Of a stretch of DNA of 64,000 nt, positions 15,271 through 38,975 are shown in pieces (the first letter of the stretch is position 1; every line of letters begins with the position of its first letter). The notes beneath the pieces are model-generated. The model saw nothing but the letters and a program-made list of their open reading frames with translations, did no database searches and was not told where the DNA came from. The stretch is from Kaistia dalseonensis (GTDB lineage: Bacteria > Pseudomonadota > Alphaproteobacteria > Rhizobiales > Kaistiaceae), in contig NZ_JAUSVO010000005.1 of assembly GCF_030814715.1 (NCBI RefSeq), forward strand, positions 186,001-250,000. The letters run 5' to 3'. The translations under genes and the position numbers were made by a program.

Positions 15271-15308
15271 TCGCCTTCAGGATCTCTCGCTTTCGGATGG
15301 AGCAGGCC

Positions 15309-19100: not shown

Positions 19101-19114
19101 TTGATCTAGATCAA
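19101..19114. promoter_or_regulatory. FNR/FixK/Anr-type box (TTGATCTAGATCAA)
   Basis: A perfect 14-bp palindrome exactly matches the TTGAT-N4-ATCAA consensus of FNR-family regulators. Its centre lies about 61.5 bp before the start point predicted from the TTGACA at 19134, a classical class I activator position. A second box occurs upstream of oxygenase copy 2 (36477). Confidence 0.65.
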
Positions 19115-19120
19115 TGCGCT

Positions 19121-19139
19121 GTATACTGACTGCTTGACA
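19121..19139 (+). promoter_or_regulatory. GTATAC motif and -35 element of the peptide ABC operon
   Basis: GTATAC (19121-19126) is followed 7 bp later by a perfect TTGACA (19134-19139). The matching -10 region (about 19156-19162) is poor, which suits a promoter that needs an activator such as the FNR-type box just upstream. Confidence 0.5.
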
Positions 19140-19247
19140 CGCGTTTAGAGAGTCTCCAATCTGGGCTTGGGGAATGCCGACGATCCGCACGGTCGTGCAG
19201 CGCAGGGCTGCATTGACAAACCTTGCTTTAAAGCAACGGAGCGGATG

Positions 19248-20735
19248 ATGACGTTGATAAGAAACTTACTTTCCGGCGTGGTATTTGCCGCTATGGCAGC
19301 GCTTCCGGCCGTTGCCGCGAGCGCATCTGAAGTGACGATCGCAATCGGCTCCGAGCCGTCCACCCTCGATCCGCAGCAGCGCGACGATGGCGGCGAACGC
19401 GCGATCAACGACAACATCTACGAGACGCTGATGGCGCGCACGCCGGCTGGCGAACTCGTCCCCGGCCTTGCGGCCGCGGCGCCGACGCAAATCGACGCGA
19501 CCACCTGGGAATTCAAGCTTCGTCCCGGCGTCACCTTCACCAATGGCGAGCCCTTCAACGCCGACGCGGTCGTGGCGAGCGTCACGCGCATCATCGATCC
19601 GGCGCTGAAGTCCGAGCAGATGTCCTATTTCGGCACGATCAAGTCGGCCGAAAAGGTCGATGACGTCACCGTCCGCATCATCACGACCGGCGCCGATCCG
19701 ATCCTGCCGTCGCGCATGTACTGGATGAAGATGGTTCCGGCCGCCTATTCCAAGGACCCGAACTTCGCGACCGCGCCCGTTGGCACCGGCCCCTATGAGC
19801 TGGACAGCTGGTCGCGCGGCGAAAGCGTCGTGCTCAAGGCCAACCCGAAATATTGGGGCGGCGCACCGGCGATCGACCAGGTCAACTACCGCTTCATCAG
19901 CGAGCCCGGCACGCGCATGTCCGGCCTGATGGCTGGCGAACTCGACGTCATCACCAACCTGCTGCCGGAATTCGTTGCCAGCGTGCCGAAGTCCGAGGCC
20001 GTCCAGGGCCTGGAGACCTCGGTCATCATCCTCTCGACCGAGAATCCGACGGTCAAGGATCTGAAGGTGCGTGAGGCGCTGAACCTCGCCGTCGACCGCA
20101 AGGCCCTCGCCGAGAGCCTCTTCTCCGGCTATGCGACGCCGACCAAGGGCCAGCTCGTGAACCCGCGCGCCTTCGGTTACAACAAGGCGCTCGAGCCCTA
20201 CCCCTATGATCCCGAGAAGGCGCGCGCGCTGATCAAGGAAGCCGGCGCCGAGGGCAAGACCATCACCCTCGTCGGTGAAGCCGGCCGCTGGCTCAAGGAT
20301 CGCGAACTGATCGAGGCCGTCGGTGCCTACTGGGATGCCGTCGGCGTCAAGACGGACATCCAGATCAACGAGTTCGGCGAATATCTGAACCAGCTCTTCG
20401 ACAAGGCCAAGCGTCCCGACGCCATCTTCGTCGTGAACTCGAACGAACTGCTCGACGCCGATCGCGAGACCAGCTTCGCCTATCAGGCCGGCGGCACCGC
20501 GACCTCGAACACCGACAAGGAATTGGCCGAATGGGTCATTGCCGCGCGGACCGAGACCGACGTCGCCAAGCGCCAGGCGCTCTATGACGAAGTGACCAAG
20601 AAGGCGCACGACAATTACTACCTGGTACCGCTGCTGAACCAGCAGGACATCTATGGTTTCTCCAAGCGCCTCGACTGGAAGCCGCGCGTCGACTCCAAGC
20701 TTCTCGTCAAGGAGATGAAGGTCACCGAGGAATAG
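19248..20735 (+). CDS. Peptide/opine-type ABC transporter substrate-binding protein
   Basis: A 495-residue periplasmic protein of solute-binding family 5. The signal peptide covers about residues 1-25 (TLIRNLLSGVVFAAMAALPAVAASA). The mature N-terminus VTIAIGSEPSTLDPQ and the lobe motif GTGPYELDSWSRGESVVLKANPKYWGG are hallmarks of dipeptide, oligopeptide, nickel or glutathione binders. GGAG lies 6 nt before the ATG at 19248; ATG at 19245 is too close to it. It heads the five-gene importer operon behind a composite promoter with an FNR-type box and GTATAC motif. Confidence 0.93.
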   Translation: MTLIRNLLSGVVFAAMAALPAVAASASEVTIAIGSEPSTLDPQQRDDGGERAINDNIYETLMARTPAGELVPGLAAAAPTQIDATTWEFKLRPGVTFTNGEPFNADAVVASVTRIIDPALKSEQMSYFGTIKSAEKVDDVTVRIITTGADPILPSRMYWMKMVPAAYSKDPNFATAPVGTGPYELDSWSRGESVVLKANPKYWGGAPAIDQVNYRFISEPGTRMSGLMAGELDVITNLLPEFVASVPKSEAVQGLETSVIILSTENPTVKDLKVREALNLAVDRKALAESLFSGYATPTKGQLVNPRAFGYNKALEPYPYDPEKARALIKEAGAEGKTITLVGEAGRWLKDRELIEAVGAYWDAVGVKTDIQINEFGEYLNQLFDKAKRPDAIFVVNSNELLDADRETSFAYQAGGTATSNTDKELAEWVIAARTETDVAKRQALYDEVTKKAHDNYYLVPLLNQQDIYGFSKRLDWKPRVDSKLLVKEMKVTEE

Positions 20736-20757
20736 TCCTCACCTCTCGACAGGGCAG

Positions 20758-20783
20758 CGAGGCGGACGGCGACGTCCGCCTCG
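20758..20783 (+). terminator. Stem-loop between binding-protein and permease genes
   Basis: A perfect 10-bp stem, CGAGGCGGAC (20758-20767) with GTCCGCCTCG (20774-20783), closes a 6-nt loop without a following T-run. It is more likely an mRNA-stabilising or partial attenuating hairpin, giving more binding protein than permease, than a full terminator. Confidence 0.5.
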
Positions 20784-20864
20784 ACGTCACGAGAAGGGCA
20801 AGGCGTTTCAACCCAGGATGCGGCCGGCGTCGCATCTTGCTTCCAAGAGATCAGAGGCTGCAGC

Positions 20865-21785
20865 ATGGGTGCATTCCTCCTGCGTCGCATTTTTCAGGGC
20901 ATGCTGGTCGTGCTCGGTGTGACGCTCGTCGTATTTGTCGCGACGCGCATGGTCGGCGATCCGGCCAAGGTCATGCTGCCGCTTTCGGCGACGGACGCGC
21001 AGCGCGCGGCCTTCAACCACCAGATGGGCCTCGACCGGCCGCTCGGCGCGCAGTTCATCACCTTTGTCGGTGACCTCTCGACGCTGGATTTCGGCGACAG
21101 CCTCTGGCAGCGCCGGCCGGCGATCCAGATCGTGTTCGAGCGACTGCCGAACACACTCGCGCTGATCGGCCTCGGCCTCGGCCTTGCCGTCACGCTTTCC
21201 CTGCCGCTCGGCGCGCTCGCGGCGCTGCGCCCGGGAGGCGTCGCCGACCGGGTCGTCGTCTTTGGCGGGCTGTTCGGCCTGTCACTGCCGCAATTCTGGC
21301 TCGGCCTCCTGATGATCATGTTCTTCGCGGTGACGCTGAAGATCTTGCCGACATCGGGCGTGGGCGGGCCATCGCACTATATCCTGCCGGCGGTCACGCT
21401 CGCCATTCCATCACTGGCGCGGCTGATGATGCTGGTGCGCTCGTCCGTCATCGACGAGCTGAACCAGCAATATGTGCGCACCGCGCGCGCCAAGGGGATG
21501 CGCTTCCACACCATCCTGTTCGGCCATGCGCTGCGCAACGCGCTGGTGCCGTTCCTGACGCTGGCCGGCTGGGAGTTCATCAGCGCGCTCGCCGGCTACA
21601 CGGTCGTGGTCGAGACGGTCTTTGCCTGGCCCGGCCTCGGCCTCACCGCCATGAAGGCGATCGAGCGCAGCGACTTGTTCCTGCTACAGGCGATCGTGTT
21701 CACCGTCGCGATCATGATCGTCATCGTGAACATCCTGCTCGACGTCCTCTACAAACTCATCGATCCTCGCATCAAGCTGGCTTGA
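20865..21785 (+). CDS. Peptide-type ABC transporter permease (DppB-like)
   Basis: A 306-residue inner-membrane permease. The N-terminus GAFLLRRIFQGMLVVLGVTLVVF is the first helix typical of DppB/OppB. The cytoplasmic coupling loop is YVRTARAKGMRFHTILFGHALRNAL, followed by the family ending DVLYKLIDPRIKLA. It forms the transmembrane channel with the DppC-like subunit encoded 3 nt further on. Confidence 0.95.
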   Translation: MGAFLLRRIFQGMLVVLGVTLVVFVATRMVGDPAKVMLPLSATDAQRAAFNHQMGLDRPLGAQFITFVGDLSTLDFGDSLWQRRPAIQIVFERLPNTLALIGLGLGLAVTLSLPLGALAALRPGGVADRVVVFGGLFGLSLPQFWLGLLMIMFFAVTLKILPTSGVGGPSHYILPAVTLAIPSLARLMMLVRSSVIDELNQQYVRTARAKGMRFHTILFGHALRNALVPFLTLAGWEFISALAGYTVVVETVFAWPGLGLTAMKAIERSDLFLLQAIVFTVAIMIVIVNILLDVLYKLIDPRIKLA

Positions 21786-21787
21786 AC

Positions 21788-22761
21788 ATGGCAGTCACCA
21801 CACACGCGGCGCCCCCGACCGCGGCCAAGCCCCGCTCCGGCTCGTTCCGTCCGATCGCGCTGGAACTCTGGCACGACAAGGCCGGGATGATCGGCTTCAC
21901 CGTCATCGTCCTCCTGATCCTGATGGCCGTCTTCGCGCCGCTGATCGCGCCCTATGATCCCGCGATCCAATCGGTTGCCGCGCGGCTGAAGCCACCGGCC
22001 TGGCTGCCCAAGGGAAGCTGGGAGCATGTGCTGGGAACCGACCAGCTCGGCCGCGACGTGCTCTCGCGTGTCATCTACGGCGCCCGCGCATCGCTGCTCG
22101 TGGGCACGTCGGTCGTGCTGCTCGCCGGCACGTTCGGCGTGCTGTTCGGGCTCTTCGCCGGATTCAAGGGCGGGCGGATCGATGATCTGATGATGCGCCT
22201 CGTCGATATCCAGGTCGCCTTTCCCGGCCTGCTCATGATCCTGCTCATCATCTCGGCCGTCGGCCCGAGCCTTTCGACCATGATCGTCGTGCTCGCGGTC
22301 ACCAACTGGATGATCTACGCCCGTGTCGTGCGCGGCATCGTTCTCTCCGTGCGCCAGACGCCCTATGTCGAAGCGGCGGAGATGATCGGCTGCAAGCCTG
22401 GCCGGGTCCTGTTCAAGCACATATTGCCGAACCTGACCTCGCCGCTGCTGACGCTCGGCATTCTCGAATTCACCAACATCGTTCTCGCCGAGGCGGCCAT
22501 GTCGTTCCTCGGACTCGGCGTGCAGCCGCCGGCGACGAGCTGGGGCTTGGATGTCTCGAACGGCAAGGACTACATTTTCGTCGCCTGGTGGCTGATCACC
22601 TTCCCCGGGCTCTCGATCTCGATCACGGTCCTTTCGATCAATCTCTTCGCCAACTGGCTGCGCGTCACCACCGATCCGCAGGAACGCGAAAAGCGCTTCG
22701 CCCGGCTGAAGGCGGTCGAGCGCCGCCGCAACGGTGCCCCGGCGGGCGCCCCCGCAAAGGC

Positions 22762-22765
<4 letters not shown>
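21788..22765 (+). CDS. Peptide-type ABC transporter permease (DppC-like)
   Basis: A 325-residue permease. The N-terminal OppC_N segment (LWHDKAGMIGFTVIVLLILMAVFAPLIAPYDP) is followed by LGTDQLGRDVLSRVIYGAR, a signature of DppC/OppC proteins. The coupling loop is YVEAAEMIGCKPGRVLFKHILPN. ATG at 21788 follows the previous stop by two bases; an overlapping TTG at 21782 is possible. Its end overlaps the next gene by 4 nt. Confidence 0.95.
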
Positions 22766-23793
<1,028 letters not shown>

Positions 23794-23800
23794 GGATCGG

Positions 23801-24805
<1,005 letters not shown>

Positions 24806-26381: not shown

Positions 26382-26610
26382 GGAAGCGGCCGCCGTCCAT
26401 ATCGGACATGGTGCCCGCAGCGTTCCGGCGGCCAGGGCGATGCGCTTGAACGCCGGCAAAAGTGCCATCACCGACTGTCAGAACGGCAGTCATAATAATG
26501 TGATAGGTCTTGGACCCTGCTCGACGCCCGCGGGCCGGCCGGCGGGTGCGAACGCCGCCAAATTGGGCAGAATCCTGCCGCGCCTTTCGCCTTTTCAGGC
26601 AAGGCATCTT

Positions 26611-26622
26611 GGTATACAGTAT
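26611..26622 (+). promoter_or_regulatory. GGTATACAGTAT element of oxygenase copy 1 promoter
   Basis: This 12-mer is identical to the one upstream of oxygenase copy 2 (36472-36461, minus strand), although the sequences around it have diverged. Conservation of only this element plus the coding region and 22 nt of leader argues for functional importance. Confidence 0.55.
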
Positions 26623-26715
26623 TCTTTATCGATCGCCGCCGGATGTCGCCCACACTGGATTGGGTGCCGTCCGCTTCCTGTAGATGCCTTGGACCCCACG
26701 ACGAGGAGACGCCCG

Positions 26716-27453
26716 ATGAGCCAGACGGCAGTAATGAACCCTGACGAATTCCGCACGGCGCTTGAGAATGCGATCAAGGGCAAGAGCGCGAACAAGTCGC
26801 CTTTTTCGGTGGCCTGGGCGTCGGGCAAGCTCTCGCGCGAGCATTTGTCGCGCTGGGCCGAGAACCACTATCACTATGTCGGCCCCTTCGCCGACTACCT
26901 CGCCTATATCTACGCCCGCATGCCGGAGACCTATGTCGAGGCGAAGGATTTCCTGCTCGCCAACATGTATGAGGAAGAGATCGGCGGCGACCGCCACACC
27001 GACCTGCTGATCCGCTTCGGCGAGGCCTGCGGCACGACCCGCGAACGCATCACTGATACGGAAAACATGTCGGCGACGACGCGCGGCCTGCAGAGCTGGT
27101 GCTATGCGGTGGCGATGCGGGAAGACCCGATCGTGGCCGTGGCCGGCCTGGTCGTCGGACTGGAATCGCAGGTTCCCTCGATCTACCGCAAGCAGACGCC
27201 GACGCTGCGCGACACCTATGGCTTCACGGACGAGGAAGTCGAGTTCTTCGACCTGCACATCGTCTCCGACGAGATCCATGGCGAGCGCGGCTACCAGATC
27301 GTGCTGGAGCATGCGCGCACCGTCGAGATGCAGCAGCGCTGCCTGAAGATCTGCGAGATCGGCGCCCAGATGCGCCTGCTCTACACCACCGCTCTCTACA
27401 ACGACTATGTCGGAGCCGAACTCCCCCTCTCCGAACTCAACCTCGCCGCTTGA
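26716..27453 (+). CDS. Heme-oxygenase-like (PqqC/TenA-fold) putative diiron oxygenase, copy 1
   Basis: A 245-residue all-helical protein of the PqqC/TenA superfamily. Probable metal ligands follow the HDO diiron pattern: a glutamate at 86-88 with H94, E150, and H181-x3-D185-x2-H188. It was once annotated 'TenA regulator', but these ligands and the adjacent ferredoxin genes point to an O2-activating iron enzyme. GAGGAG lies 7 nt before the ATG. It heads a rightward operon with two ferredoxins, a small protein, an aldehyde dehydrogenase, a permease and an ornithine-cyclodeaminase-like enzyme. An identical protein is encoded inversely at 35622-36359; only silent DNA differences are seen. Substrate unknown. 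Confidence 0.82.
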   Translation: MSQTAVMNPDEFRTALENAIKGKSANKSPFSVAWASGKLSREHLSRWAENHYHYVGPFADYLAYIYARMPETYVEAKDFLLANMYEEEIGGDRHTDLLIRFGEACGTTRERITDTENMSATTRGLQSWCYAVAMREDPIVAVAGLVVGLESQVPSIYRKQTPTLRDTYGFTDEEVEFFDLHIVSDEIHGERGYQIVLEHARTVEMQQRCLKICEIGAQMRLLYTTALYNDYVGAELPLSELNLAA

Positions 27454-27468
27454 GGCGCCCCTCACCTT

Positions 27469-27503
27469 CTCCGTCATCCCGGTCTTTCTCTGGGGTGACG
27501 GAG
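27469..27503 (+). terminator. Hairpin between oxygenase copy 1 and ferredoxin 1
   Basis: CTCCGTCA (27469-27476) pairs with TGACGGAG (27496-27503), extended by CCC/GGG. No T-run follows, so it is probably a partial attenuator or processing site within the operon. It resembles GTCATCCC-type intergenic repeats. Confidence 0.45.
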
Positions 27504-27558
27504 AGATGGCCGTGACCCATGGCCGACGACCAATCAATTTGCTGGCGAAAGAGTTCGT

Positions 27559-27849
27559 ATGCCGACTGTGGTGTTTCACAAGAATGGCGAAATCTACCGG
27601 GACGAGGTCAAGGACAACACCAATCTCGTCGTCCGCGCCGGCATCAAGCAGTTCCCGTTTCCGCATCTGAAATATAGCTGCGGCATGGGAAAATGCGCGA
27701 CATGCACCTGCAAGATCCTGAGCGGCGCGGAGCATCTCGCCGCGCCGAACTGGAAAGAGAAAAAGCAGCTCGGCGAAAAGCTCGACCAGGGCTACCGCCT
27801 CGCCTGCCAGCTCTGGATCCACCAGGATATCGAGCTCATGCAGGAATAA
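27559..27849 (+). CDS. [2Fe-2S] plant-type ferredoxin 1
   Basis: A 96-residue ferredoxin. Cluster ligands are C41, C46, C49 (C-x4-C-x2-C in SCGMGKCATC) and C83 (LACQ). The family carries single electrons to oxygenases. It follows the oxygenase gene by 105 nt, separated by a hairpin, and precedes a second, distinct ferredoxin. The two ferredoxins differ strongly outside the ligand loop, so they may serve different redox partners. Electrons probably come from the reductase encoded at 33929-34930. Confidence 0.92.
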   Translation: MPTVVFHKNGEIYRDEVKDNTNLVVRAGIKQFPFPHLKYSCGMGKCATCTCKILSGAEHLAAPNWKEKKQLGEKLDQGYRLACQLWIHQDIELMQE

Positions 27850-27925
27850 CTGGGCGTCACCCGCATCGTCGATGCGGCGAACGCGTCTTGAAGATCACAT
27901 GACAACAACCCGATTGGATCGTGCG

Positions 27926-28219
27926 ATGTATCTCATCCTGACCACCAAGCCCGGACAGTTCAAGACCGAGATCACCGACGGACTGACAGCCGTCGAATCT
28001 TACGACTACATTTTCTACGGCCACAAGCGCGCCAATTTCACCATCGCCGAGATCAAGGATCCGGTCCGGATCACGATCATCGAGGATGCGCCGCCGCGGA
28101 TCGTGAACAAGGTGCCGTCCAAGCTGTTCGAGAAGTTCGAGACGCTGGATGAAGCCCGCCACGAGCTTCATACGCTGACGACCTATGGCAGCATGGACAT
28201 CGAGCTCCGTCCGGCCTGA
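27926..28219 (+). CDS. Small conserved-looking protein of unknown function
   Basis: A 97-residue protein starting MYLILTTKPGQFKTEI; I do not recognise the family. It contains a short beta-rich start, then SYDYIFYGHKRANFTIAEI and a helix FEKFETLDEARHELHTL, with no cysteines and no membrane segment. Being sandwiched between two ferredoxin genes, it may be a coupling or regulatory subunit of the oxygenase, or an accessory factor. GGAT lies about 6 nt before the ATG at 27926; an in-frame ATG at 27899 would add nine residues. Codon use matches the neighbours. Confidence 0.7.
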   Translation: MYLILTTKPGQFKTEITDGLTAVESYDYIFYGHKRANFTIAEIKDPVRITIIEDAPPRIVNKVPSKLFEKFETLDEARHELHTLTTYGSMDIELRPA

Positions 28220-28267
28220 TCGCGGCCTCTTCCCCCACACGACACGCAATGGACTGCCAGCCGGCCC

Positions 28268-28567
28268 ATGATCACGATCACCTTTGTTACCAATGACGGC
28301 AAGACCGCTACCGCGCCGGACAACAGCAACCTCCTGCGCGTCTCGCTGCGCGAGAAGGGCGGCATTCCGTTCAAATGCGGCGGCGGCATCTGCGGCACCT
28401 GCAAGTGCAAGATCGAAGACGGCATCGAGAATACCGACACGATCAAGCCGAAGGAGCGCAAGCACCTGACCGAAGCCGATTTCGCCGCCGGCTATCGCAT
28501 GGCCTGCCAGACCTTCGTCAATGGCGACATCAGCGTCTCCTGGATCCCGCTGGCCGATCGGCGCTAG
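28268..28567 (+). CDS. [2Fe-2S] plant-type ferredoxin 2
   Basis: A 99-residue ferredoxin with ligands C37, C42, C45 (CGGGICGTC) and C80 (MACQ). It resembles the ferredoxin domains found in PaaE-like and Rieske-oxygenase reductases. It is distinct from ferredoxin 1 but clearly in the same operon. Having two separate ferredoxins beside one oxygenase is unusual and suggests either a two-step relay or two client enzymes, for example the oxygenase and an unlinked partner. Confidence 0.92.
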   Translation: MITITFVTNDGKTATAPDNSNLLRVSLREKGGIPFKCGGGICGTCKCKIEDGIENTDTIKPKERKHLTEADFAAGYRMACQTFVNGDISVSWIPLADRR

Positions 28568-28711
28568 GGCATCTTCCCATGCCCCGGCTCTCTGTCTGGC
28601 CGCATTGCTTCATGCAAACCACGATTCCCTGCGCCTGAAACTGCTCCGACGCGGCCCTGCAACGACAGGCGATCGTCCATCGATTGCCGCGCACCACGAA
28701 AGCCCAATGGA

Positions 28712-30166
28712 ATGTCCTATCTGAATTATATCGGCGGCCAGTGGATCGGCGCTGCGAGCGGCGCGACCTTCGAGGACACGAACCCCGCCGATGAGCGCGA
28801 CCTGATCGGCGCCTTTCCCGATTCCGGCGCGGCCGATGTCGCCGCTGCGGTGAGCGCGGTCAAGGCCGCGCGCCCGGCCTGGTCGGCCGCCTCGCCGGAG
28901 GTGCGCGCCGACATCCTCTTCAAGGCCGCCGACATCATGTCGCGCCGAGCCGACGAGATCGCGGCCGAGCTGACGCGCGAAGAGGGCAAGACGATCAACG
29001 AGGCCCGCAACGAGGCCCGCCGCATCGCGGCGAATTTCCGCCTTTATGCGGGCGAGGCGCTGCGCCTCAACGGCGAGACCTATCCGAGCGAGGCTGGACA
29101 GCTGGTGCTCTCCGTCCGCCAGCCGGTCGGCGTTGTCGCCGTGATCACGCCGTGGAATTTCCCGCTCTCCATGGCCGCGCGCAAGATCGCCCCGGCGCTC
29201 GCCGCCGGAAACGGCGTCATCTTCAAGCCGTCCGAGATCACGCCGCTGATGGGCCAGCGGCTCGTCGAGGTGCTGCTCGAGGCAGGACTGCCGGCCAACC
29301 TGATCGCCCTGGTGCAGGGCCGCGGCCCGACCGTCGGCCAGGCGATCACGGCGGAACCCGGCATCGATGCGCTGACCTTCACCGGCTCGTTTGCCGTCGG
29401 CAAGCAGATCGCCGCCTCGCTTTCGACCGACACGCGCTGCCAGCTCGAAATGGGCGGCAAGAACGCGACGGTCGTGCTCGCCGACGCCGATATCGCCAAG
29501 GCAGCGGCAATCATCGAGCGCGGGGCCTTCGGCCTGACGGGCCAGGCCTGCACCGGCACCAGCCGCGTGCTCGTGGCGCGCCCGCTCTATGACGCGCTGG
29601 TCGAAAAGCTCGCCGGCGTCGCCAAGGCGATCAAGGTCGGCCCCGGCACCGCCGACGGCGTCAAGATGGGCCCGCTCGCAACGCGCGGCCAGTATGAGAA
29701 GGTGCTCGCCTATATCGAGATCGCGAAGAGCGAAGGCGCTCGGATCGTGACCGGCGGCGAGGCATTGCGCGAGAGCGGCGACGACGCGCTCGCCCATGGC
29801 TATTTCGTCAGCCCCGCCGTCATCGCCGATCTCCCGGCCGACAGCCGCCTGATGCGCGAAGAAATCTTCGGTCCGGTGGTCGCGATCCGCGCGATCGATT
29901 CGCTCGACGAGGCGATCGCGCTGGCCGACGAGACCGAATATGGCCTCGCCGTCTCGCTGGTGACCAACGACCTGAACGCCGTGATGCGGTTCACGCGCGA
30001 AACGCAACACGGGATCATCAAAGTCAACAGCCCGACAACGGGTGTTTCCTTGAACGCGCCCTTTGGCGGCTTCAAGCATTCGAGCAACCAGGCGGCCAAG
30101 GAACAGGGCGGCGCCAACGTCATGGACTTCTACAGCCGCATCAAGACGGTCTATCTCGGCGCGTAG
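28712..30166 (+). CDS. Aldehyde dehydrogenase (2-oxoglutarate semialdehyde / succinate semialdehyde type)
   Basis: A 484-residue NAD(P)-dependent aldehyde dehydrogenase. VVAVITPWNFPLSMAARKI marks the cofactor region, E246 lies in LEMGGK and the catalytic C280 in GLTGQACTG. The C-terminal GIIKVNSPTTGVSLNAPFGG with KHSSNQ is typical of 2-oxoglutarate (2,5-dioxovalerate) semialdehyde dehydrogenases, although related enzymes take succinate or glutarate semialdehyde. It oxidises an aldehyde to the acid, which would feed the TCA cycle. It is the fifth gene of the oxygenase-ferredoxin operon. Confidence 0.9.
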   Translation: MSYLNYIGGQWIGAASGATFEDTNPADERDLIGAFPDSGAADVAAAVSAVKAARPAWSAASPEVRADILFKAADIMSRRADEIAAELTREEGKTINEARNEARRIAANFRLYAGEALRLNGETYPSEAGQLVLSVRQPVGVVAVITPWNFPLSMAARKIAPALAAGNGVIFKPSEITPLMGQRLVEVLLEAGLPANLIALVQGRGPTVGQAITAEPGIDALTFTGSFAVGKQIAASLSTDTRCQLEMGGKNATVVLADADIAKAAAIIERGAFGLTGQACTGTSRVLVARPLYDALVEKLAGVAKAIKVGPGTADGVKMGPLATRGQYEKVLAYIEIAKSEGARIVTGGEALRESGDDALAHGYFVSPAVIADLPADSRLMREEIFGPVVAIRAIDSLDEAIALADETEYGLAVSLVTNDLNAVMRFTRETQHGIIKVNSPTTGVSLNAPFGGFKHSSNQAAKEQGGANVMDFYSRIKTVYLGA

Positions 30167-30171
30167 CGATC

Positions 30172-30930
30172 ATGCAGAGCCTGCCGTTCCTGTTGCCGGA
30201 AGGCTTTGCCTGGGGCCATTTTGCCGGCAGCGCGGCCATGGTCTTCGTCGCGGCCCTGCTGCAAGGCATAGGCGGGCTCGGCTTTGCCATGGTTTCGGCG
30301 CCGCTCGCGGTGCTGTTCTTCCCCGAGCTAGCGCCTGGCCCGTTGCTGGTGCTCGGCGCCGGCCTCGCTCTGCTCGGGCTCCTGCGTGAGCGCAGCGAAA
30401 TTGACTGGCCCGCCGCCGGCACCCTGATGGCCGGCCGGATCGGCGGAACACTGGTCGCCGGCGCGACGCTGACGATCCTGCCGACGACGCTGTTCTCGAT
30501 CGTCTTCGCCTTGCTGATCCTGACCGGCGTGACCTTCAGCCTGAGCGGCTGGCGGGTCGAGGCGACGCGGCCGAACATGATGCTCGCCGGCCTCGCTTCC
30601 GGCCTGATGGGCACGATCACATCGTCGGGCGCCCCACCCTTCGCGATCGTCATGCAGCATGTGGCCCCGGCCCGCCTGCGGGCGACGCTCTCCTGCGTGT
30701 TCTTCTTCGGCGCCATCCTGTCGCTGTTGATGCTCGCGATCGTCGGCCGCTTCAGCACGGCCCAGCTCTGGCTGGGGTTGATGCTGTTTCCCTTGATGAT
30801 TCTGGGCTTCATCGCCTCGAATCCGCTGACGCGCCTCTTTTCCCGCGAAGCCGTTCGCATGATGCTGTTGACGCTTTCCGCGCTCGGCGCGATCGGTATT
30901 CTCGTGCGGAGTTGGGTGCTCTGGTCCTGA
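30172..30930 (+). CDS. TauE/SafE family membrane permease
   Basis: A 252-residue integral membrane protein with about eight helices and two weakly repeated halves. The first half contains ALLQGIGGLGFAMVSAPL, the second SGLMGTITSSGAPPFAIVM; these GxxGxxxP-like repeats are characteristic of the TauE/SafE (DUF81) family. Members export or import sulfite, sulfoacetate or small organic acids. It starts 5 nt after the aldehyde dehydrogenase stop, so it is co-translated and may move a pathway product or substrate. Substrate not determinable. Confidence 0.86.
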   Translation: MQSLPFLLPEGFAWGHFAGSAAMVFVAALLQGIGGLGFAMVSAPLAVLFFPELAPGPLLVLGAGLALLGLLRERSEIDWPAAGTLMAGRIGGTLVAGATLTILPTTLFSIVFALLILTGVTFSLSGWRVEATRPNMMLAGLASGLMGTITSSGAPPFAIVMQHVAPARLRATLSCVFFFGAILSLLMLAIVGRFSTAQLWLGLMLFPLMILGFIASNPLTRLFSREAVRMMLLTLSALGAIGILVRSWVLWS

Positions 30931-30967
30931 ACGACCGGCGGCTCCGCATTCGACTGAAAGGACTTCC

Positions 30968-31882
30968 GTGCTCCACATCACCGACGACATGGTCGCCGAA
31001 GCCGTCACCATTGCCGAGGCGCAGGCCGTGATGCGCGACGCCTTCGAGAGCTTCGGACGCGGACGAGCCTCCATGCAAGAGCGCATCCGCACGGAGGCCG
31101 GCGGCGTCAAGCTCTCGACGCTCGGCGCTGTGATCCCGGATCTGGGCGTTACGGGGGCCAAGGTCTACACGACGATTGCCGGCCAGTTCTCCTTCGCGAT
31201 CTCGCTCTTTTCGACGGAGGACGGACGGCCGCTCGCCTCGCTCGAGGCGAACGCGATCACCCGGCTGCGCACGCCTGCCTGTTCGGTCCTGGCCGCACGC
31301 CACCTCGCCCGCGCTGACAGCCGGCGCCTCGCGCTGTTCGGCACCGGCGTCCAGGGCCGTGCCCATGCGATCCAGATGGCGAGCGCCTATCCGCTCGCGG
31401 AGATCCTGATCGTTTCCTCGCATCCGAACGCGATGGTCGCCGAAGCCATCGCGACCGAAAGCGGCGTCGCTGCCCGACTCGCCTCGGCGGAGGAGGCGGT
31501 CGCCAATGCGGATATCATCGTCACGGCTTCGCGCAGCAAGACAGCGCTCTTTGATGGGTCGTGGCTGCAGCCGGGAACGTTCATTTCGGCTGTGGGATCG
31601 AGCCTACCCAATACGCGAGAACTCGACGATCTGACGCTCGCCCGTTCATCGATCATCGCGGTGGAATGGCGGCCCCAAAGCCTGCGCGAGGCCGGCGATC
31701 TCGTGCTCGGCGCCCGATCCGCGCTGCCGGACGAGAAGATCGCAGAGCTCGGCGAACTCGTAACGGCACAGAAGGCGGGACGCACCGACCCGACGGAAAT
31801 CACACTCTACAAATCGGTCGGCGTCGGCCTCGAGGACATAGCGCTCGCCGGCCTTGCCTACCGAAAGATCGTCGGCGCCTGA
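30968..31882 (+). CDS. Ornithine cyclodeaminase / mu-crystallin family protein
   Basis: A 304-residue NAD(P)-binding enzyme of the OCD/mu-crystallin family. The substrate part has GGVKLSTLGAVIPDLGVTGAKVY, and the Rossmann motif is ALFGTGVQGRAHA (about residues 117-129), followed by the TASRSKTALFDGSWLQPGT region. Family members include ornithine cyclodeaminase, alanine dehydrogenase, ketimine reductase and opine-type dehydrogenases, all acting on amino or imino acids. GTG start at 30968 has AAAGGA 6 nt upstream. It is the last gene of the operon and implies a nitrogen-containing intermediate. Confidence 0.85.
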   Translation: MLHITDDMVAEAVTIAEAQAVMRDAFESFGRGRASMQERIRTEAGGVKLSTLGAVIPDLGVTGAKVYTTIAGQFSFAISLFSTEDGRPLASLEANAITRLRTPACSVLAARHLARADSRRLALFGTGVQGRAHAIQMASAYPLAEILIVSSHPNAMVAEAIATESGVAARLASAEEAVANADIIVTASRSKTALFDGSWLQPGTFISAVGSSLPNTRELDDLTLARSSIIAVEWRPQSLREAGDLVLGARSALPDEKIAELGELVTAQKAGRTDPTEITLYKSVGVGLEDIALAGLAYRKIVGA

Positions 31883-31889
31883 AGGCGGT

Positions 31890-32534
31890 TCAACCGTCCT
31901 GCGGTATCTGGGCGGCGTTATAGACATGGCGGGCCGCGAGCAGCGCCGCAAGCTCGGCGTCACCATCAATGACGGCCCGCAGGATCGCAGCGTGTTCCTG
32001 CCAGTTCTGCTTGCCGCGATGGCGGCTGATCGGTGCGAACAGCATGGCAGTCCGGTCGCGCAACGAGCGGATCATGTCCTGAAGGACAGAGTTCCCGCCA
32101 ATATTGCCGAGCGCCTCATGGAAGCGAAAATTCTGCTGCGAGAGCTGAATCGCATCTTCGCTCTCCGAAATGCCGGCGCCTTCGTCGAGAATCTGCTGCA
32201 GCTCGGCGATCTGGCTCGGATCATGGCGCTTGGCCGCGAGCTTGGCATTCAGCGCTTCCAGCGTGGCACGAACCTCAACCAATTCGCGCTTCTGCTCTTC
32301 GGTAAAGGTCGTGACCGACGCGCCGCGACGCGGTTCGATCGTCACCAGGCCCTCGGCCGCCAGTTCACGCAGCGCCTCACGCACGGGCATGCGCGAAACA
32401 CCGAGCTCCTCGGAGAGCTTGCCTTCGATCAACCGTTCGCCGAGCGGGATATCGCCCGAGAGAATGCGCTCCCGGAGAGCGGCGGTGACGAGTTTAGTCA
32501 GCGGGGCGTGGGTTGCCCCCAGAGCGATATTCAT
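31890..32534 (-). CDS. GntR family regulator (FCD domain)
   Basis: A 214-residue regulator. The winged helix-turn-helix is at residues 12-75 (LVTAALRERILSGDIPLGERL, LSEELGVSRMPVREALREL, GLVTIEPRRGASV), and an FCD helical domain follows, with histidine FHEAL and HAAILRAV. It is convergent with the cyclodeaminase-like gene and divergent from the M20 amidohydrolase, so it probably controls the latter. It is the second regulator type in the island besides MarR. Confidence 0.88.
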   Translation of the reverse strand: MNIALGATHAPLTKLVTAALRERILSGDIPLGERLIEGKLSEELGVSRMPVREALRELAAEGLVTIEPRRGASVTTFTEEQKRELVEVRATLEALNAKLAAKRHDPSQIAELQQILDEGAGISESEDAIQLSQQNFRFHEALGNIGGNSVLQDMIRSLRDRTAMLFAPISRHRGKQNWQEHAAILRAVIDGDAELAALLAARHVYNAAQIPQDG

Positions 32535-32762
32535 GATCCTACTGCCTCGGCGGCCCTTGCAAGCGCGGGCTCGGAAACGGTCCGCCCGACGGGTCTATTT
32601 CGCGATTGGATACAGAATGCAAGACCCTACTATGACATAGCCGATTCAGCATCGCCGCGCCATGCCACCAGCCCGGTGGCTGGTGTCGCAGGCGAGCCTC
32701 GGCCGTTTGTGGCGAGGTTACGAAACCGCCGGCTACCGTCGATGGCGGCCCCGAAGGATATG

Positions 32763-33920
32763 ATGAACGCTCCTGATATCGCCACGCTCACGGATTTTCG
32801 CCACGAGTTGCACCGCCATCCTGAGGTCTCCGGCGAAGAAGTCGAGACAGCGCGACGGGTTGCCGGTTTCATCGAAACGGCGGGGCCAGATCTCCTGTTG
32901 ACGGGACTTGGTGGCCATGGCGTCGCGGCGATCTTCGCCGGGGCGGAGCCCGGTCCAACGCTGCTGATTCGTTCCGAACTCGACGCCCTGCCGATCGAGG
33001 AGCTGAGTCATGCCGTCTACCGTTCGACGATTCCGGGCAAGGGTCATCTCTGTGGCCATGACGGGCACAGCAGCATATTGGCCGGACTCGCGCTCGAACT
33101 CGGACGCATGCGCCCGGCGAGAGGCCGCATCGTGCTGCTGTTCCAGCCTGCCGAGGAGGATGGTTCCGGCGCGGCGGCCGTGATCGCGGATCCGCGCTTC
33201 GACCAGATCCGTCCCGAACTGGCGCTGGCGTTGCACAACATGCCGGGACTTCCGTTCGGTGTCGCCGCGCTCGACGAGGGGCCATTCGCCTGCGCCTCGG
33301 CCGGCCTGCGGATCACGCTTGCGGGCAGAACCGCACATGCCTCCATGCCCGAGACAGGCCTTTCCCCACTGCAGGCCGTCTCGCGGCTATTGCCGGCGCT
33401 GACGGCGCTTGGCAGCGGCGCGCCGCTCGGCCCGGGTTTTTCGCTGGCGACCGTGACGCATGCACGAATGGGCGAGCCGACATTTGGTGTCGCCCCCGGC
33501 AGCGCCGAGATCCGCGTGACACTTCGTGCCATCACCAATGAGGACATGGCCAGTCTGATGGCGCGAGCGGAGGCCCTGGCAACCAACATCGCCAACGAAG
33601 AAGGCCTCGGTGTCTCGTTCAGCCATCACGATGCGTTCGACGCTTGCTTCAACGCCCCGGAGGCGACGGCGCTCCTGCGCCGTGCCCTGACCGATGCCGG
33701 CGTTCCGATCGTGACGACCGGACTGCCGATGCGGGCATCCGAGGACTTTGGCCGTTTCAGCCGCATCTGCCCGACGGCGATGTTCCTGCTCGGCGCTGGC
33801 GTGGATCGTCCGGCTCTGCACAATCCGGACTATGACTTCGTCGATGCCCTGATTCCGATCGGTATCGACGTGTTCTTGCGCGCCATCCGAACTACGCTCG
33901 GCGGCAGCGCGACCAAATAG
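32763..33920 (+). CDS. M20 family amidohydrolase (hippurate / N-acyl amino acid hydrolase-like)
   Basis: A 385-residue zinc-dependent amidohydrolase of the M20D group. FRHELHRHPEVSGEE starts the fold; metal-site motifs are LCGHDGHSSIL, PAEEDGSGA and LHNMPG, and the lid domain begins RITLAGRTAHASMPE. Such enzymes cleave N-acyl amino acids (hippurate, indoleacetyl-amino acids). AAGGA lies 4 nt before ATG 32763; in-frame ATGs at 32760 and 32742 are alternatives. Near the Ggt-like amidase, it gives the island a second amide-cleaving activity. The regulator is probably the divergent GntR protein. Confidence 0.88.
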   Translation: MNAPDIATLTDFRHELHRHPEVSGEEVETARRVAGFIETAGPDLLLTGLGGHGVAAIFAGAEPGPTLLIRSELDALPIEELSHAVYRSTIPGKGHLCGHDGHSSILAGLALELGRMRPARGRIVLLFQPAEEDGSGAAAVIADPRFDQIRPELALALHNMPGLPFGVAALDEGPFACASAGLRITLAGRTAHASMPETGLSPLQAVSRLLPALTALGSGAPLGPGFSLATVTHARMGEPTFGVAPGSAEIRVTLRAITNEDMASLMARAEALATNIANEEGLGVSFSHHDAFDACFNAPEATALLRRALTDAGVPIVTTGLPMRASEDFGRFSRICPTAMFLLGAGVDRPALHNPDYDFVDALIPIGIDVFLRAIRTTLGGSATK

Positions 33921-33928
33921 AGGTCCGT

Positions 33929-34930
33929 TCAGCGATTGTGCTGAAACAGAAAGCTGTCGGCGTAGATGTGATTGGCGCTCGCGCCCTTGGCCAGGAACTC
34001 GCTCTTGGCGGCTGCAACCATTTCGGGCGAGCCGCAGAGATAGATCGCATAATCCGACAGGTCGTCTATGTCCTCGAGAACGGCCTGCTGGACATAGCCG
34101 CGCCGGCCTTGCCAGCCTTCGCCGGCGCGCGACAGGACCGGCACATACTGGAACTCGTAGAGCCGCTCGCCCCAGGCAGGGATGTCGTGGTGGAGATAGA
34201 GATCGCCCTCGGTGCGCATGCCCCAATAGAGCGCGACGGGCGGACAATCCGGATCGTCCATCAGTGATTCGATCATGCTCTTGATCGGCGCGAGACCCGT
34301 GCCGGTCGCCACCATGAGCATGGGCCGGTAGTCTTCCTTGCGCAGGAAGAAGGCCCCATGGGGCAGTTCGACATCGAGCGTGTCGCCGGGCTTGAGCGCG
34401 GCGAGGCGGGCCTGTGTGAAACTGCCGCCCGGGATGCGGCGGATATGAAGGTCGATCAGGCCCGCGGCAGGCTGCGAGGCCATGGAGAAGGAACGTGGCG
34501 CGCCGTCGTCCGTGAGTATGTTGACGTATTGACCCGGCAGATAGGTGAATTCCGTGTCGTCGGGCAGTTCGAGCACCAGGTGCACGACGTCATTGCTGAG
34601 CGCCTCGATGGACTTGACCGTCGCGCGATGCAGTTCGGGGGTCGGCCGCGTCGACGGCAGCACCTCGGCGCTCGCCACGATGTCGCTGGTGGGCGTCGCC
34701 TGGCAGGCCAGGGCGAACCCCTCGCTCTCCTCTTCGGGCGAAAGCCCCATGGGTTCACCGGCATAGGCGACACCGCCTTCCACCAGCTTGAAGCGACATG
34801 AACCGCATGTGCCCGTCTTGCAATCATGTGGCAGGTTGACCTCGGCGCGAAGGGCCGCGGCGAGGATCGATTCATGCGGCTCGACGTCGAAAGCGATCAG
34901 GCTTTCGATGAGCGTCACGCGGTGCGACAA
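33929..34930 (-). CDS. NAD(P)H-ferredoxin reductase with N-terminal [2Fe-2S] domain (BenC/CDP-6-deoxyglucoseen reductase type)
   Basis: A 333-residue electron-transfer protein. An N-terminal plant-type ferredoxin domain with CKTGTCGSC and ALACQ is followed by an FAD-binding domain (about 100-200; PRSFSMASQP is the flavin-binding RxxS motif) and an NAD(P)-binding domain (MLMVATGTGLAPIKSMIE; YLCGSPEMV). Enzymes of this kind supply electrons to aromatic-ring or diiron oxygenases. It is the last gene of the operon headed by oxygenase copy 2. The start is assigned as TTG at 34930; no strong ribosome site is visible, and GTG at 34918 is an alternative. It converges on the amidohydrolase. Confidence 0.9.
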   Translation of the reverse strand: MSHRVTLIESLIAFDVEPHESILAAALRAEVNLPHDCKTGTCGSCRFKLVEGGVAYAGEPMGLSPEEESEGFALACQATPTSDIVASAEVLPSTRPTPELHRATVKSIEALSNDVVHLVLELPDDTEFTYLPGQYVNILTDDGAPRSFSMASQPAAGLIDLHIRRIPGGSFTQARLAALKPGDTLDVELPHGAFFLRKEDYRPMLMVATGTGLAPIKSMIESLMDDPDCPPVALYWGMRTEGDLYLHHDIPAWGERLYEFQYVPVLSRAGEGWQGRRGYVQQAVLEDIDDLSDYAIYLCGSPEMVAAAKSEFLAKGASANHIYADSFLFQHNR

Positions 34931-34984: not shown

Positions 34985-35464
34985 CTATTTCTTGATATCG
35001 GCCTCGACCAGAACCGTGTGTCCTTCCGAGGCGAGCAGATCGGCGAGCGCCTGAAGCGCCGCGAGACCCGCCTTCGTATCCTGTTCGCCATTGCCGCCCG
35101 ACAGACCGACGCCGCCGACGACGGCACCATTCACGACAACCGGAAAGCCGCCGACGAAGGCTGCAAAACGCCCCTCGAAAGAGAGCTGGATGCCGAAGGC
35201 TTCGTTGCCCGGCAGTGCCGGGCCATTGGGCGGCGTGGTGAAGAGATGCGTCGAGCGCTTGTGCCCGGCGGCTGTGAACGCCTTGTTCCAGGCGATCTGC
35301 GGACCCGTTATGCGCGCGCCGTCCATGCGCTCCATGGCGAGCGGAAAGCCGCCCTCATCGACGATGCAAACCGTCTCCAGAACGCCGATTTCCTCAGACT
35401 TCGCGATCGCCGCGGCGATCATGGCCCGTGCCTCGCGAAGCTCCAGCTTGAGCGCTGCTTTCAA
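34985..35464 (-). CDS. HbpS/GlcG family protein
   Basis: A 159-residue protein of the HbpS/GlcG (DUF336) family. LKLELREARAMIAAAIAKSEEIG is the first helix, VDEGGFPLAMERMDGA and FVGGFPVVVNGAVVGGVGLSGG are the conserved core. Some members bind heme or flavin-like ligands; others are encoded in catabolic operons with undefined roles (for example beside glycolate oxidase). The start codon TTG (35464-35462) overlaps the stop of the upstream 41-residue frame (TTGA), so translational coupling is likely. It lies between oxygenase copy 2 and the reductase. Confidence 0.83.
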   Translation of the reverse strand: MKAALKLELREARAMIAAAIAKSEEIGVLETVCIVDEGGFPLAMERMDGARITGPQIAWNKAFTAAGHKRSTHLFTTPPNGPALPGNEAFGIQLSFEGRFAAFVGGFPVVVNGAVVGGVGLSGGNGEQDTKAGLAALQALADLLASEGHTVLVEADIKK

Positions 35465-35621: not shown

Positions 35622-36359
35622 TCAGGCGGCGAGGTTGAGTTCGGAGAGGGGGAGTTCGGCTCCGACATAGTCGTTGTAAAGAGCGGTGGTATAGAGCAGG
35701 CGCATCTGGGCGCCGATCTCGCAGATCTTCAGGCAGCGCTGCTGCATCTCGACGGTCCGCGCATGCTCCAGCACGATCTGGTAGCCGCGCTCGCCATGGA
35801 TCTCGTCGGAGACGATGTGCAGGTCGAAGAACTCGACTTCCTCGTCCGTGAAGCCATAGGTGTCGCGCAGCGTCGGCGTCTGCTTGCGGTAGATCGAGGG
35901 AACCTGCGATTCGAGCCCGACGACCAGGCCGGCCACGGCCACGATCGGATCTTCCCGCATCGCCACCGCATAGCACCAGCTCTGCAGGCCGCGCGTCGTC
36001 GCCGACATGTTCTCCGTATCGGTGATGCGTTCGCGCGTCGTGCCGCAGGCTTCGCCGAAGCGGATCAGCAGGTCGGTGTGGCGATCGCCGCCGATCTCTT
36101 CCTCATACATGTTGGCGAGCAGGAAATCCTTCGCCTCGACATAGGTCTCCGGCATGCGGGCGTAGATATAGGCGAGGTAGTCGGCGAAGGGGCCGACATA
36201 GTGATAGTGGTTCTCGGCCCAGCGCGACAAATGCTCGCGCGAGAGCTTGCCCGACGCCCAGGCCACCGAAAAGGGCGACTTGTTCGCGCTCTTGCCCTTG
36301 ATCGCATTCTCAAGCGCCGTGCGGAATTCGTCAGGGTTCATTACTGCCGTCTGGCTCAT
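35622..36359 (-). CDS. Heme-oxygenase-like putative diiron oxygenase, copy 2
   Basis: Encodes a 245-residue protein identical to the one at 26716-27453, with the same probable ligands (Glu86-88 region, H94, E150, H181, D185, H188). DNA identity also covers 22 nt before the ATG, including the GAGGAG ribosome site, then stops, and it ends again right after the stop codon. The silent differences seen include the bases matching 27126, 27159 and 27162. Here it heads a leftward operon with a short peptide, an HbpS/GlcG protein and the ferredoxin-reductase gene. Its promoter carries GGTATACAGTAT and an FNR-type box. One copy may serve aerobic and the other low-oxygen conditions, or dosage. Confidence 0.82.
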   Translation of the reverse strand: MSQTAVMNPDEFRTALENAIKGKSANKSPFSVAWASGKLSREHLSRWAENHYHYVGPFADYLAYIYARMPETYVEAKDFLLANMYEEEIGGDRHTDLLIRFGEACGTTRERITDTENMSATTRGLQSWCYAVAMREDPIVAVAGLVVGLESQVPSIYRKQTPTLRDTYGFTDEEVEFFDLHIVSDEIHGERGYQIVLEHARTVEMQQRCLKICEIGAQMRLLYTTALYNDYVGAELPLSELNLAA

Positions 36360-36460
36360 CGGGCGTCTCCTCGTCGTGGGGCTCGGGTCCGGGGCGATCG
36401 CAGCGGAGGGACGTCCCGGAAGAACGCCGCAACTCCGCATCAATCGATCACCAATAATGG

Positions 36461-36472
36461 ATACTGTATACC
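36461..36472 (-). promoter_or_regulatory. GGTATACAGTAT element of oxygenase copy 2 promoter
   Basis: It is identical over 12 bases to the element before copy 1 and lies 102 nt upstream of the ATG. Five bases upstream (in the direction of transcription) comes an FNR-type box, the same order as at 19101-19126. Confidence 0.55.
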
Positions 36473-36476
36473 GAGA

Positions 36477-38884: not shown

Positions 38885-38975
38885 CGCGCTTCGGCACGAC
38901 CAGTGCCGACGTTGACGCGCGGGCGTTCGGGGATCAAACCAGACGGACGATCTCGCCCAAAGACCGAGCGGCCCT

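What the first reader, a model, noticed from the sequence alone, without database searches (positions are those of the whole stretch)
26716..34930. A complete but unassigned oxygenase electron chain: HDO enzyme, two different ferredoxins and a [2Fe-2S]-FAD reductase
HDO-type enzymes usually need two electrons from a reductant, and dedicated ferredoxin/reductase partners are seldom encoded beside them. Here copy 1 has two ferredoxins and an unknown 97-residue protein, and copy 2 has the reductase and an HbpS/GlcG protein. Downstream enzymes (aldehyde dehydrogenase, cyclodeaminase-like, M20 amidohydrolase) suggest oxidation of an amine- or amide-containing substrate. This is the best candidate for an undescribed pathway in the window.
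Basis: partly seen in the sequence, partly recalled or inferred. Interest (0 to 1): 0.82.

Follow-up and report, generated by a model that had tools for sequence, protein, structure and literature searches.

The report
Ferredoxin-fed catabolic HDO oxygenase cassette
The window carries a conserved gene cassette in which a small metal-dependent, oxygen-using enzyme travels with two ferredoxins, a reductase and a small protein of unknown fold, apparently to break down an unidentified small molecule; the characterised members of this enzyme family mostly make natural products.

Summary
Two copies of one HDO protein (identical; 13 synonymous differences in 738 nt) head two gene runs: HDO-Fdx1-P97-Fdx2-ALDH-TauE-OCD and HDO-HbpS-reductase. 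In 82 homologous loci, Fdx1, P97 and Fdx2 lie near the HDO in 81, 80 and 79; the absences are contig ends or a second HDO copy. A linked reductase is in only 51. In 398 genomes sampled from the phylum, the four holding P97 are the four holding this HDO clade. A GTATAC box, probably the operator of the linked GntR regulator, precedes the HDO in 21 of 27 taxon representatives (shuffles give 0.6), a putative permease in 14 of 14 and the gamma-glutamyltransferase in 4 of 6. Six HDO metal ligands are invariant; CADD's sacrificial Tyr and Lys are absent. P97 folds confidently in silico with no convincing PDB match. Best reading: a reductase/ferredoxin-driven multicomponent HDO for catabolism of an amide- or gamma-glutamyl-linked small molecule. 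The substrate stays unknown; M20 and SorAB are not supported partners. A dedicated HDO redox partner has been reported (MboA/MboB, 2026, called possibly the first); ten paper searches listed no description of this cassette. New variant of a known kind.

The parts
19111..19136 (.). GTATAC box upstream of the ABC transporter (hexamer at 19121)
   Evidence: the same box upstream of SBP in 3 of 5 copies, 0 of 2 among representatives
19245..24805 (+). oligopeptide/dipeptide-type ABC transporter: SBP, two permeases, two ATPases
   Evidence: SBP_bac_5, BPD_transp_1, OppC_N, ABC_tran + oligo_HPY; a close SBP (66-73% identical) near the HDO in L020, L021, L025, L026, L041
24823..26295 (-). gamma-glutamyltransferase (GGT), start taken at 26295
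   Evidence: PF01019 355.8 bits; NCBIfam g_glut_trans 258.6 bits, cut-off 357.85; GTATAC at 26361 upstream
26608..26626 (.). box GGTATACAGTATTC, copy-1 promoter
   Evidence: GTATACNRTAT has 4 places in the 5.18 Mb genome, two of them before the two HDO genes; reversed control 1
26716..27453 (+). HDO copy 1 (CADD-like heme-oxygenase-like dimetal oxidase)
   Evidence: PF14518 124.7 bits; E87 H94 E150 H181 D185 H188 invariant in 83 of 83; model best hit CADD 8va9 TM 0.79/0.90
27559..27849 (+). ferredoxin 1, [2Fe-2S] plant type
   Evidence: Fer2; the four cluster Cys in 82 of 82
27899..28219 (+). P97, small protein of unknown family (97 aa from 27926)
   Evidence: no family match; no significant PDB-sequence match; AF2 pLDDT 92, pTM 0.82; best PDB fold match E 0.13
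28268..28567 (+). ferredoxin 2, [2Fe-2S], CxxCxC with an extra invariant Cys47
   Evidence: Fer2; C47 in 79 of 79
28712..30166 (+). aldehyde dehydrogenase; best NCBIfam models are dioxovalerate/KGSA dehydrogenases, below cut-off
   Evidence: in 63 of 82 loci
30172..30930 (+). TauE/SafE-family permease
   Evidence: PF01925 70.3 bits; homolog in 47 of 82 loci
30968..31882 (+). ornithine cyclodeaminase/mu-crystallin family protein
   Evidence: PF02423; nearest PDB 3hdj 317.9 bits; in 26 of 82 loci
31890..32534 (-). GntR/FCD regulator, proposed reader of the GTATAC box
   Evidence: PF00392 + PF07729; in 72 of 82 loci
33929..34930 (-). [2Fe-2S]/FAD/NAD(P) reductase, BenC-like
   Evidence: in 51 of 82 loci
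34985..35464 (-). HbpS/GlcG-like protein
   Evidence: PF03928; in 78 of 82 loci, 74-85% identical, invariant Cys33 His68 His73
35622..36359 (-). HDO copy 2, protein identical to copy 1
36455..36475 (.). box GGTATACAGTATCC, copy-2 promoter

Best explanation
A dedicated multicomponent HDO oxygenase system for catabolism. Electrons pass from NAD(P)H through the FAD/[2Fe-2S] reductase to one or both small ferredoxins and on to the HDO's dimetal site, which activates O2 and oxidises a small molecule. P97 works with the HDO or ferredoxins, most likely as a coupling or docking protein (inferred from strict linkage; unproven). The substrate enters by a dedicated putative permease in most genomes, or, as here, probably as a gamma-glutamyl or peptide conjugate by the ABC transporter; GGT or an amidase frees it. 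The HDO product is then handled by ALDH and, in some lineages, OCD; HbpS has a tightly conserved but unknown role. GntR-FCD controls the set through GTATAC boxes. Shown by sequence: components, linkage, ligand residues, boxes. Inferred: electron path, oxygenase role, catabolic role, P97 role, regulator-box pairing. Unknown: substrate and product.
For: Of 82 loci, Fdx1 in 81, P97 80, Fdx2 79, HbpS 78, GntR 72, ALDH 63, reductase 51; the 82 evidently include one contig twice (L020 and L084). P97 in 4 of 398 phylum genomes; the HDO clade (>500 bits) in the same 4. Six ligand positions invariant in 83 of 83 and kept in all 16 outgroup copies aligned. Model fold: CADD 8va9 rmsd 2.4, TM 0.79/0.90; UndA, FlcD and HrmI also hit. 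GTATAC in 27 representatives: HDO 21 of 27, putative permease 14 of 14, GGT 4 of 6, other genes 9 of 305; first of 64 palindromic hexamers; shuffle mean 0.6, maximum 3. In all 82 loci: HDO 78 of 86 copies, permease 58 of 59, amidase 9 of 10, GGT 7 of 11, other 40 of 796. The nearest outgroup HDO (44%, G066) keeps HbpS and GntR homologs and has a Rieske protein divergently next to it. [quoted passage not shown] MboB uses NAD(P)H, flavin and Fe2S2 (PMC13185094, passages).
Against: No biochemistry, substrate or expression data. A linked reductase is missing from the held stretch in 31 of 82 loci, among them nine Bradyrhizobium loci; ALDH is missing in 19 of 82. Some Acetobacteraceae loci show only HDO-Fdx1-P97-Fdx2-HbpS plus regulator and permease. 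Flanks of at most 10 kb (14 kb for plasmids) could hide parts. The 77 main loci were the best-scoring by HDO identity, so the 83-92% identity and the linkage are partly a matter of selection; the more distant HDO of G066 has no P97. The HDO model came from 29 near-identical sequences (mean pLDDT of five models 87, 76, 75, 74, 68). Box counts fall in the representatives for TauE (33 of 46 overall, 2 of 9), ALDH (27 of 64, 2 of 16), SBP (3 of 5, 0 of 2) and amidase (9 of 10, 1 of 2). The box is absent before 8 of 86 HDO copies. M20 is not conserved.
Confidence: 0.68

Rival explanations
1. Ferredoxins and reductase serve assembly or maintenance of the HDO metal cofactor (as YfaE does for the class Ia ribonucleotide reductase, recalled) and not electron supply in each turnover.
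For: Fdx2 and the reductase have weak YfaE-model matches, 18.9 and 39.6 bits, cut-off 75; HDO clusters are described as labile in many HDOs (PMC13108848, section 4).
Against: Two ferredoxins plus a BenC-type reductase exceed a maintenance need (inference); MboB is needed for full turnover of MboA (PMC13185094, passages).
Confidence: 0.14
2. The substrate is an organosulfur compound; TauE exports sulfite or a sulfonate and SorAB oxidises sulfite.
For: TauE homolog in 47 of 82 loci, box 33 of 46; a SorA/SorB pair near the HDO in 14 loci, all Achromobacter (families tested on L028 only); OCD has a weaker match to thiomorpholine-carboxylate dehydrogenase 4bv8, 106 bits.
Against: SorA carries the box in 0 of 14 and its cluster occurs only in those Achromobacter loci among the 82; in representatives TauE has the box in 2 of 9; TauE-type permeases export several anions (recalled).
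Confidence: 0.13
3. A ferredoxin-dependent heme or tetrapyrrole oxygenase, with HbpS as heme handler.
For: Heme oxygenase fold; some bacterial and plant heme oxygenases use ferredoxin (recalled); HbpS family name.
Against: The 3-His/3-carboxylate set is fully conserved; the closest relatives are CADD and PqqC, then other HDOs; GGT, amidase, ALDH and a GntR-FCD regulator do not suggest heme uptake; PDB relatives of this HbpS include EfgA and NahX beside heme-binding proteins.
Confidence: 0.03
4. A self-sacrificing p-aminobenzoate synthase (CADD/NePabS type).
For: CADD is the nearest PDB relative and nearest fold; NCBIfam CADD model 98.7 bits.
Against: Below that model's cut-off of 200; Tyr27 is Ser31 and Lys152 is Gln160 (alignment; residues named in PMC11965152 passages); catabolic-type neighbours.
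Confidence: 0.02

Closest known systems
MboA/MboB (mangotoxin HDO and its reductase; PMC13185094, passages read)
   Same: HDO with a dedicated NAD(P)H-flavin-[2Fe-2S] reductase encoded with it
   Different: MboA is biosynthetic (desaturations on a peptide) and its described partner is one reductase; here two separate ferredoxins and P97 are added, the HDO is CADD-like and the neighbours look catabolic. MboA did not appear in the PDB sequence search (E up to 1) or among the 50 listed fold hits, but its entries may be missing from those copies
CADD / NePabS self-sacrificing pABA synthases
   Same: nearest fold and sequence, same six-ligand set
   Different: sacrificial Tyr and Lys absent; ferredoxin partners; GntR-linked box
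Soluble diiron monooxygenases (sMMO, T4MO type)
   Same: similar division of labour: metal oxygenase, ferredoxin and/or reductase, small coupling protein (analogy; recalled)
   Different: different oxygenase fold (recalled); coupling role of P97 untested; no such entry among the 50 listed fold hits of P97
Benzoate dioxygenase-type reductase BenC
   Same: Fer2-FAD-NAD domain order, 212.8 bits
   Different: below the equivalog cut-off of 430; linked to an HDO

Membership tests
HDO (heme-oxygenase-like dimetal oxidase) | seven-helix heme-oxygenase fold | tested here: met
   AF2 model; Foldseek CADD, UndA, FlcD, HrmI
HDO (heme-oxygenase-like dimetal oxidase) | 3 His / 3 carboxylate ligand set | tested here: met
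   E87 H94 E150 H181 D185 H188 invariant in 83 of 83; ligand numbering of CADD recalled; geometry not measured
HDO (heme-oxygenase-like dimetal oxidase) | metal binding and O2 activation | not testable with these tools
   needs protein
CADD-type pABA synthase | sacrificial Tyr27 and Lys152 | tested here: not met
   Ser31 and Gln160 in alignment; residues named in PMC11965152 passages
CADD-type pABA synthase | NCBIfam TIGR04305 cut-off | tested here: not met
   98.7 of 200 bits
PqqC | NCBIfam TIGR02111 cut-off | tested here: not met
   52.6 of 240 bits
[2Fe-2S] plant-type ferredoxin (Fdx1, Fdx2) | Cx4Cx2C...C cluster cysteines | tested here: met
   Fdx1 82 of 82; Fdx2 first three Cys 79 of 79, last 78 of 79 with one gap
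HDO with dedicated redox partner (MboAB-like) | partner encoded with the HDO and conserved with it | tested here: met
   ferredoxins near the HDO in 81 and 79 of 82 loci, reductase in 51 of 82
HDO with dedicated redox partner (MboAB-like) | partner needed for turnover | not testable with these tools
   needs enzyme assay
Multicomponent monooxygenase coupling protein (P97) | fold of the known effector proteins | tested here: inconclusive
   no such entry among the 50 listed of 825 Foldseek hits, all E 0.13 or worse; no direct comparison made

The most novel reading that the evidence does not exclude
A second, independently evolved class of multicomponent dimetal oxygenase: an HDO takes the place of the ferritin-like hydroxylase of methane/toluene monooxygenases, with its own reductase, two ferredoxins and a small effector (P97) of a new fold. 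It would be the first HDO system shown to serve growth on a compound and not natural-product or cofactor synthesis, and part of a wider set of catabolic CADD-like HDOs, seen here next to UbiD, molybdenum-hydroxylase and racemase/isochorismatase-type genes.
Probability: 0.4. Interest if true: 0.8.

Novelty: new variant of a known kind. Interest (0 to 1): 0.62.

Why it matters
About a dozen HDOs are characterised, predominantly on fatty or amino acids (PMC13108848, section 4), and how they get electrons is a gap: the MboA paper presents MboA/MboB as possibly the first characterised dedicated pair. This cassette gives a highly conserved HDO with a nearly complete proposed electron chain and a promoter-box-defined gene set, so the electron-supply question and a possible new catabolic reaction become directly testable in a laboratory strain such as Cupriavidus metallidurans CH34, which holds the cassette (L017).

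Tried and rejected
Sulfite/organosulfur reading: raised by SorAB near Achromobacter HDOs and by TauE; weakened because SorA has the box in 0 of 14 loci and its cluster is confined to Achromobacter among the 82 loci. pABA synthase: rejected on Tyr27/Lys152 and the NCBIfam cut-off. M20 as a partner: rejected as not conserved. Other genome sites of the box (two places): neighbours read by eye gave no evident link; not pursued. Naming the putative permease (58 of 82 loci): no Pfam, NCBIfam or PDB-sequence match for the one copy tested. Naming P97: family searches empty, PDB sequence and fold searches without a significant match. Motif search for ferredoxins near outgroup HDOs: none in 12 outgroup loci, but the filter is crude; in 6 core loci it found only one or two ferredoxin-type proteins each, so it is weak evidence. 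Ferredoxin- and reductase-type tblastn hits were also absent in the 11 outgroup stretches (E up to 1e-4). Substrate from literature: ten paper searches listed no title or abstract describing this cassette or a catabolic HDO; only three papers were opened, in part (PMC13108848 outline, section 4 and passages; PMC13185094 and PMC11965152 passages), so listed papers could hold more; most subscription papers are not held. HDO geometry could not be measured, as model coordinates are not exposed.
Full report
What is there. Families are from Pfam and NCBIfam. The two HDO proteins are identical; their genes differ at 13 of 738 positions, all synonymous, and similarity fades beyond about 20 bases before the start and just after the stop codon, which looks like duplication or gene conversion with strong purifying selection (inference). 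Four Aminobacter genomes also have two copies (91-92% identical proteins; L021 with L022 is one of these genomes), and Cupriavidus basilensis L038 has two with identical proteins over the 240 residues compared.

Is it a unit? One scan of genome contigs counted 492 relatives of the HDO and returned the best 77 loci, 83-92% identical. To these I added three plasmid loci and two loci of unnamed same-order genomes (L020 is evidently the contig of L084), 82 in all. Counts by tblastn with window proteins: Fdx1 81, P97 80, Fdx2 79, HbpS 78, GntR 72, ALDH 63, reductase 51, TauE 47, OCD 26, M20 14, GGT 13 of 82. Absences of Fdx1, P97 or Fdx2 are L022 (a second HDO copy; ferredoxins on the same contig in L021) and L093 and L096 (contig ends). 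The 31 loci without a reductase in the stretch include nine Bradyrhizobium loci (names). These loci were picked by HDO identity, many are Achromobacter, and they are related. A less biased check: in 398 genomes drawn from the phylum, P97 occurs in 4 and HDO matches above 500 bits occur in the same 4 (apparently the same draw). Three more genomes had weaker HDO matches and no P97 match; the best, G066, is 203 bits. In the class sample P97 (single-sequence query) was found in 1 of 385, the window's own genome. In the order sample 13 of 397 genomes matched the HDO, three of them at 86% or more, own genome included; the other 10 are 22-25% identical. None of the 10 other genomes of the window's genus in that sample matched, so horizontal acquisition is likely (inference).

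Promoter boxes. GGTATACAGTAT lies before both HDO genes. GTATACNRTAT has four places in the 5.18 Mb genome, two of them these; the reversed control has one. GTATAC also lies before GGT (26361) and before the ABC transporter's binding protein (19121), and at five other places in the window. Over 82 loci, counting -350 to +90 of each start given by my own gene caller: HDO 78 of 86, putative permease 58 of 59, TauE 33 of 46, amidase 9 of 10, GGT 7 of 11, SBP 3 of 5, ALDH 27 of 64, GntR 32 of 71, Fdx1 8 of 80, reductase 0 of 50, SorA 0 of 14, other genes 40 of 796. With one locus for each of 27 taxa: HDO 21 of 27, permease 14 of 14, GGT 4 of 6, GntR 13 of 22, ALDH 2 of 16, TauE 2 of 9, amidase 1 of 2, SBP 0 of 2, remaining core genes 11 of 119, other 9 of 305; GTATAC ranks first of 64 palindromic hexamers and shuffles give 0.6 of 27 on average, 3 at most. 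Divergent neighbours share boxes. That GntR reads the box is inferred from linkage.

The HDO. Nearest PDB sequences are CADD/CT610. The AlphaFold2 model (best mean pLDDT 87, other four 68-76) matches CADD 8va9 with TM 0.79/0.90. From the alignment, CADD's ligands E81 H88 E142 H174 D178 H181 (ligand list recalled) fall on E87 H94 E150 H181 D185 H188, all invariant in 83 of 83 sequences; sixteen outgroup HDOs of 26-45% identity keep them too. CADD's sacrificial Tyr27 and Lys152 (PMC11965152, passages) are Ser31 and Gln160, so it is not a pABA synthase of that type.

The electron chain. Fdx1 and Fdx2 keep the cluster cysteines; Fdx2 also keeps Cys47 in 79 of 79, Fdx1 its Cys51 in 56 of 82. The reductase has the BenC domain order. 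[quoted passage not shown] The 2026 HDO review has no occurrence of the word ferredoxin in its main text (PMC13108848, term search). The nearest outgroup HDO found (44%, G066) has an HbpS homolog (53%), a GntR homolog (56%) and a Rieske protein divergently beside it: HDO, HbpS and GntR may be the older core, with a changed Fe-S partner (one case).

P97. No Pfam or NCBIfam match; PDB sequence searches gave only E 0.22 (single) and 0.99 (45-sequence profile). Its model is confident (pLDDT 92, pTM 0.82, mostly strands with one helix) but the best PDB fold match has E 0.13 and TM 0.31. This is a candidate new fold; no library of predicted cellular structures was on hand. Its place between the two ferredoxins suggests a coupling or docking role (inference).

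Pathway. The boxed genes suggest import, release by GGT or an amidase, oxidation by the HDO, then ALDH and, in some lineages, OCD. One Azospirillum locus (L085) has MFS, amidase, GGT, GntR, HDO, Fdx1, P97, Fdx2, ALDH, HbpS and reductase in one run (amidase and MFS families tested on the L057 members of the same clusters). L080 fuses Fdx2 to an alpha/beta hydrolase. Acetobacteraceae loci such as L036, L059 and L075 show, of these genes, only regulator, permease, HDO, Fdx1, P97, Fdx2 and HbpS, so ALDH, OCD and linked reductase are not universal. Against my reading: substrate and reaction are unknown, and a sulfur compound cannot be excluded. More distant HDOs (22 of 385 class genomes at E 1e-20, own and G066 included; stretches of 10 of those genomes besides G066 fetched) lie beside UbiD, amidohydrolase, isochorismatase-type and racemase-type genes (L149) or molybdenum-hydroxylase and TRAP genes (L155), which again looks catabolic.

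Verdict. Observation confirmed, interpretation partly supported. A new variant of a known kind (HDO), with a possible new multicomponent class if P97 and the ferredoxins prove essential. No paper describing this cassette was seen in the listings of ten searches.

Noticed in passing
26716-27453 and 35622-36359: Two HDO copies with 13 synonymous and no amino-acid differences, flanks dissimilar beyond about 20 bp: duplication or gene conversion with strong selection.
   Followed up: yes
L017:11106-12644 (cluster in 58 of 82 loci): A ~510-aa putative permease carries the GTATAC box in 58 of 59 copies; the L017 copy has no Pfam, NCBIfam or PDB-sequence match.
   Followed up: partly
34985-35464: HbpS/GlcG-like protein is 74-85% identical in the loci compared, with invariant Cys33, His68, His73; median identity 79%, above both ferredoxins. 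PDB relatives include EfgA and NahX.
   Followed up: partly
L080:7708-9036: Natural fusion of Fdx2 with an alpha/beta hydrolase (BD-FAE/Abhydrolase_3).
   Followed up: no
L155, L159: Genomes G157 and G255 hold 7 and 6 CADD-like HDO matches, several clustered; in G157 some lie near molybdenum-hydroxylase and TRAP transporter genes.
   Followed up: partly
L149, L151, L154: CADD-like HDOs lie beside UbiD, amidohydrolase, isochorismatase and racemase genes in L149, with similar-looking genes by eye in L151 and L154.
   Followed up: partly
L029:4101-9892: Rhodospirillales MAG locus has molybdenum-hydroxylase subunits and a PRK04334-family protein just upstream of HDO-Fdx1-P97-Fdx2-HbpS; the same clusters recur in four similar loci.
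   Followed up: no
L028:7789-9346: A SorAB sulfite dehydrogenase pair lies near the HDO in 14 Achromobacter loci, with the GTATAC box before SorA in 0 of 14.
   Followed up: yes
15209-15549: Three further GTATAC hexamers near an SDR gene at 14348-15112; role unknown.
   Followed up: no
37481-42448: A glucuronate isomerase (UxaC) gene and precorrin/cobalamin genes (NIR_SIR_ferr-domain protein, CbiC) follow the cassette; the next two genes look like cobalamin methyltransferases by eye only.
   Followed up: partly
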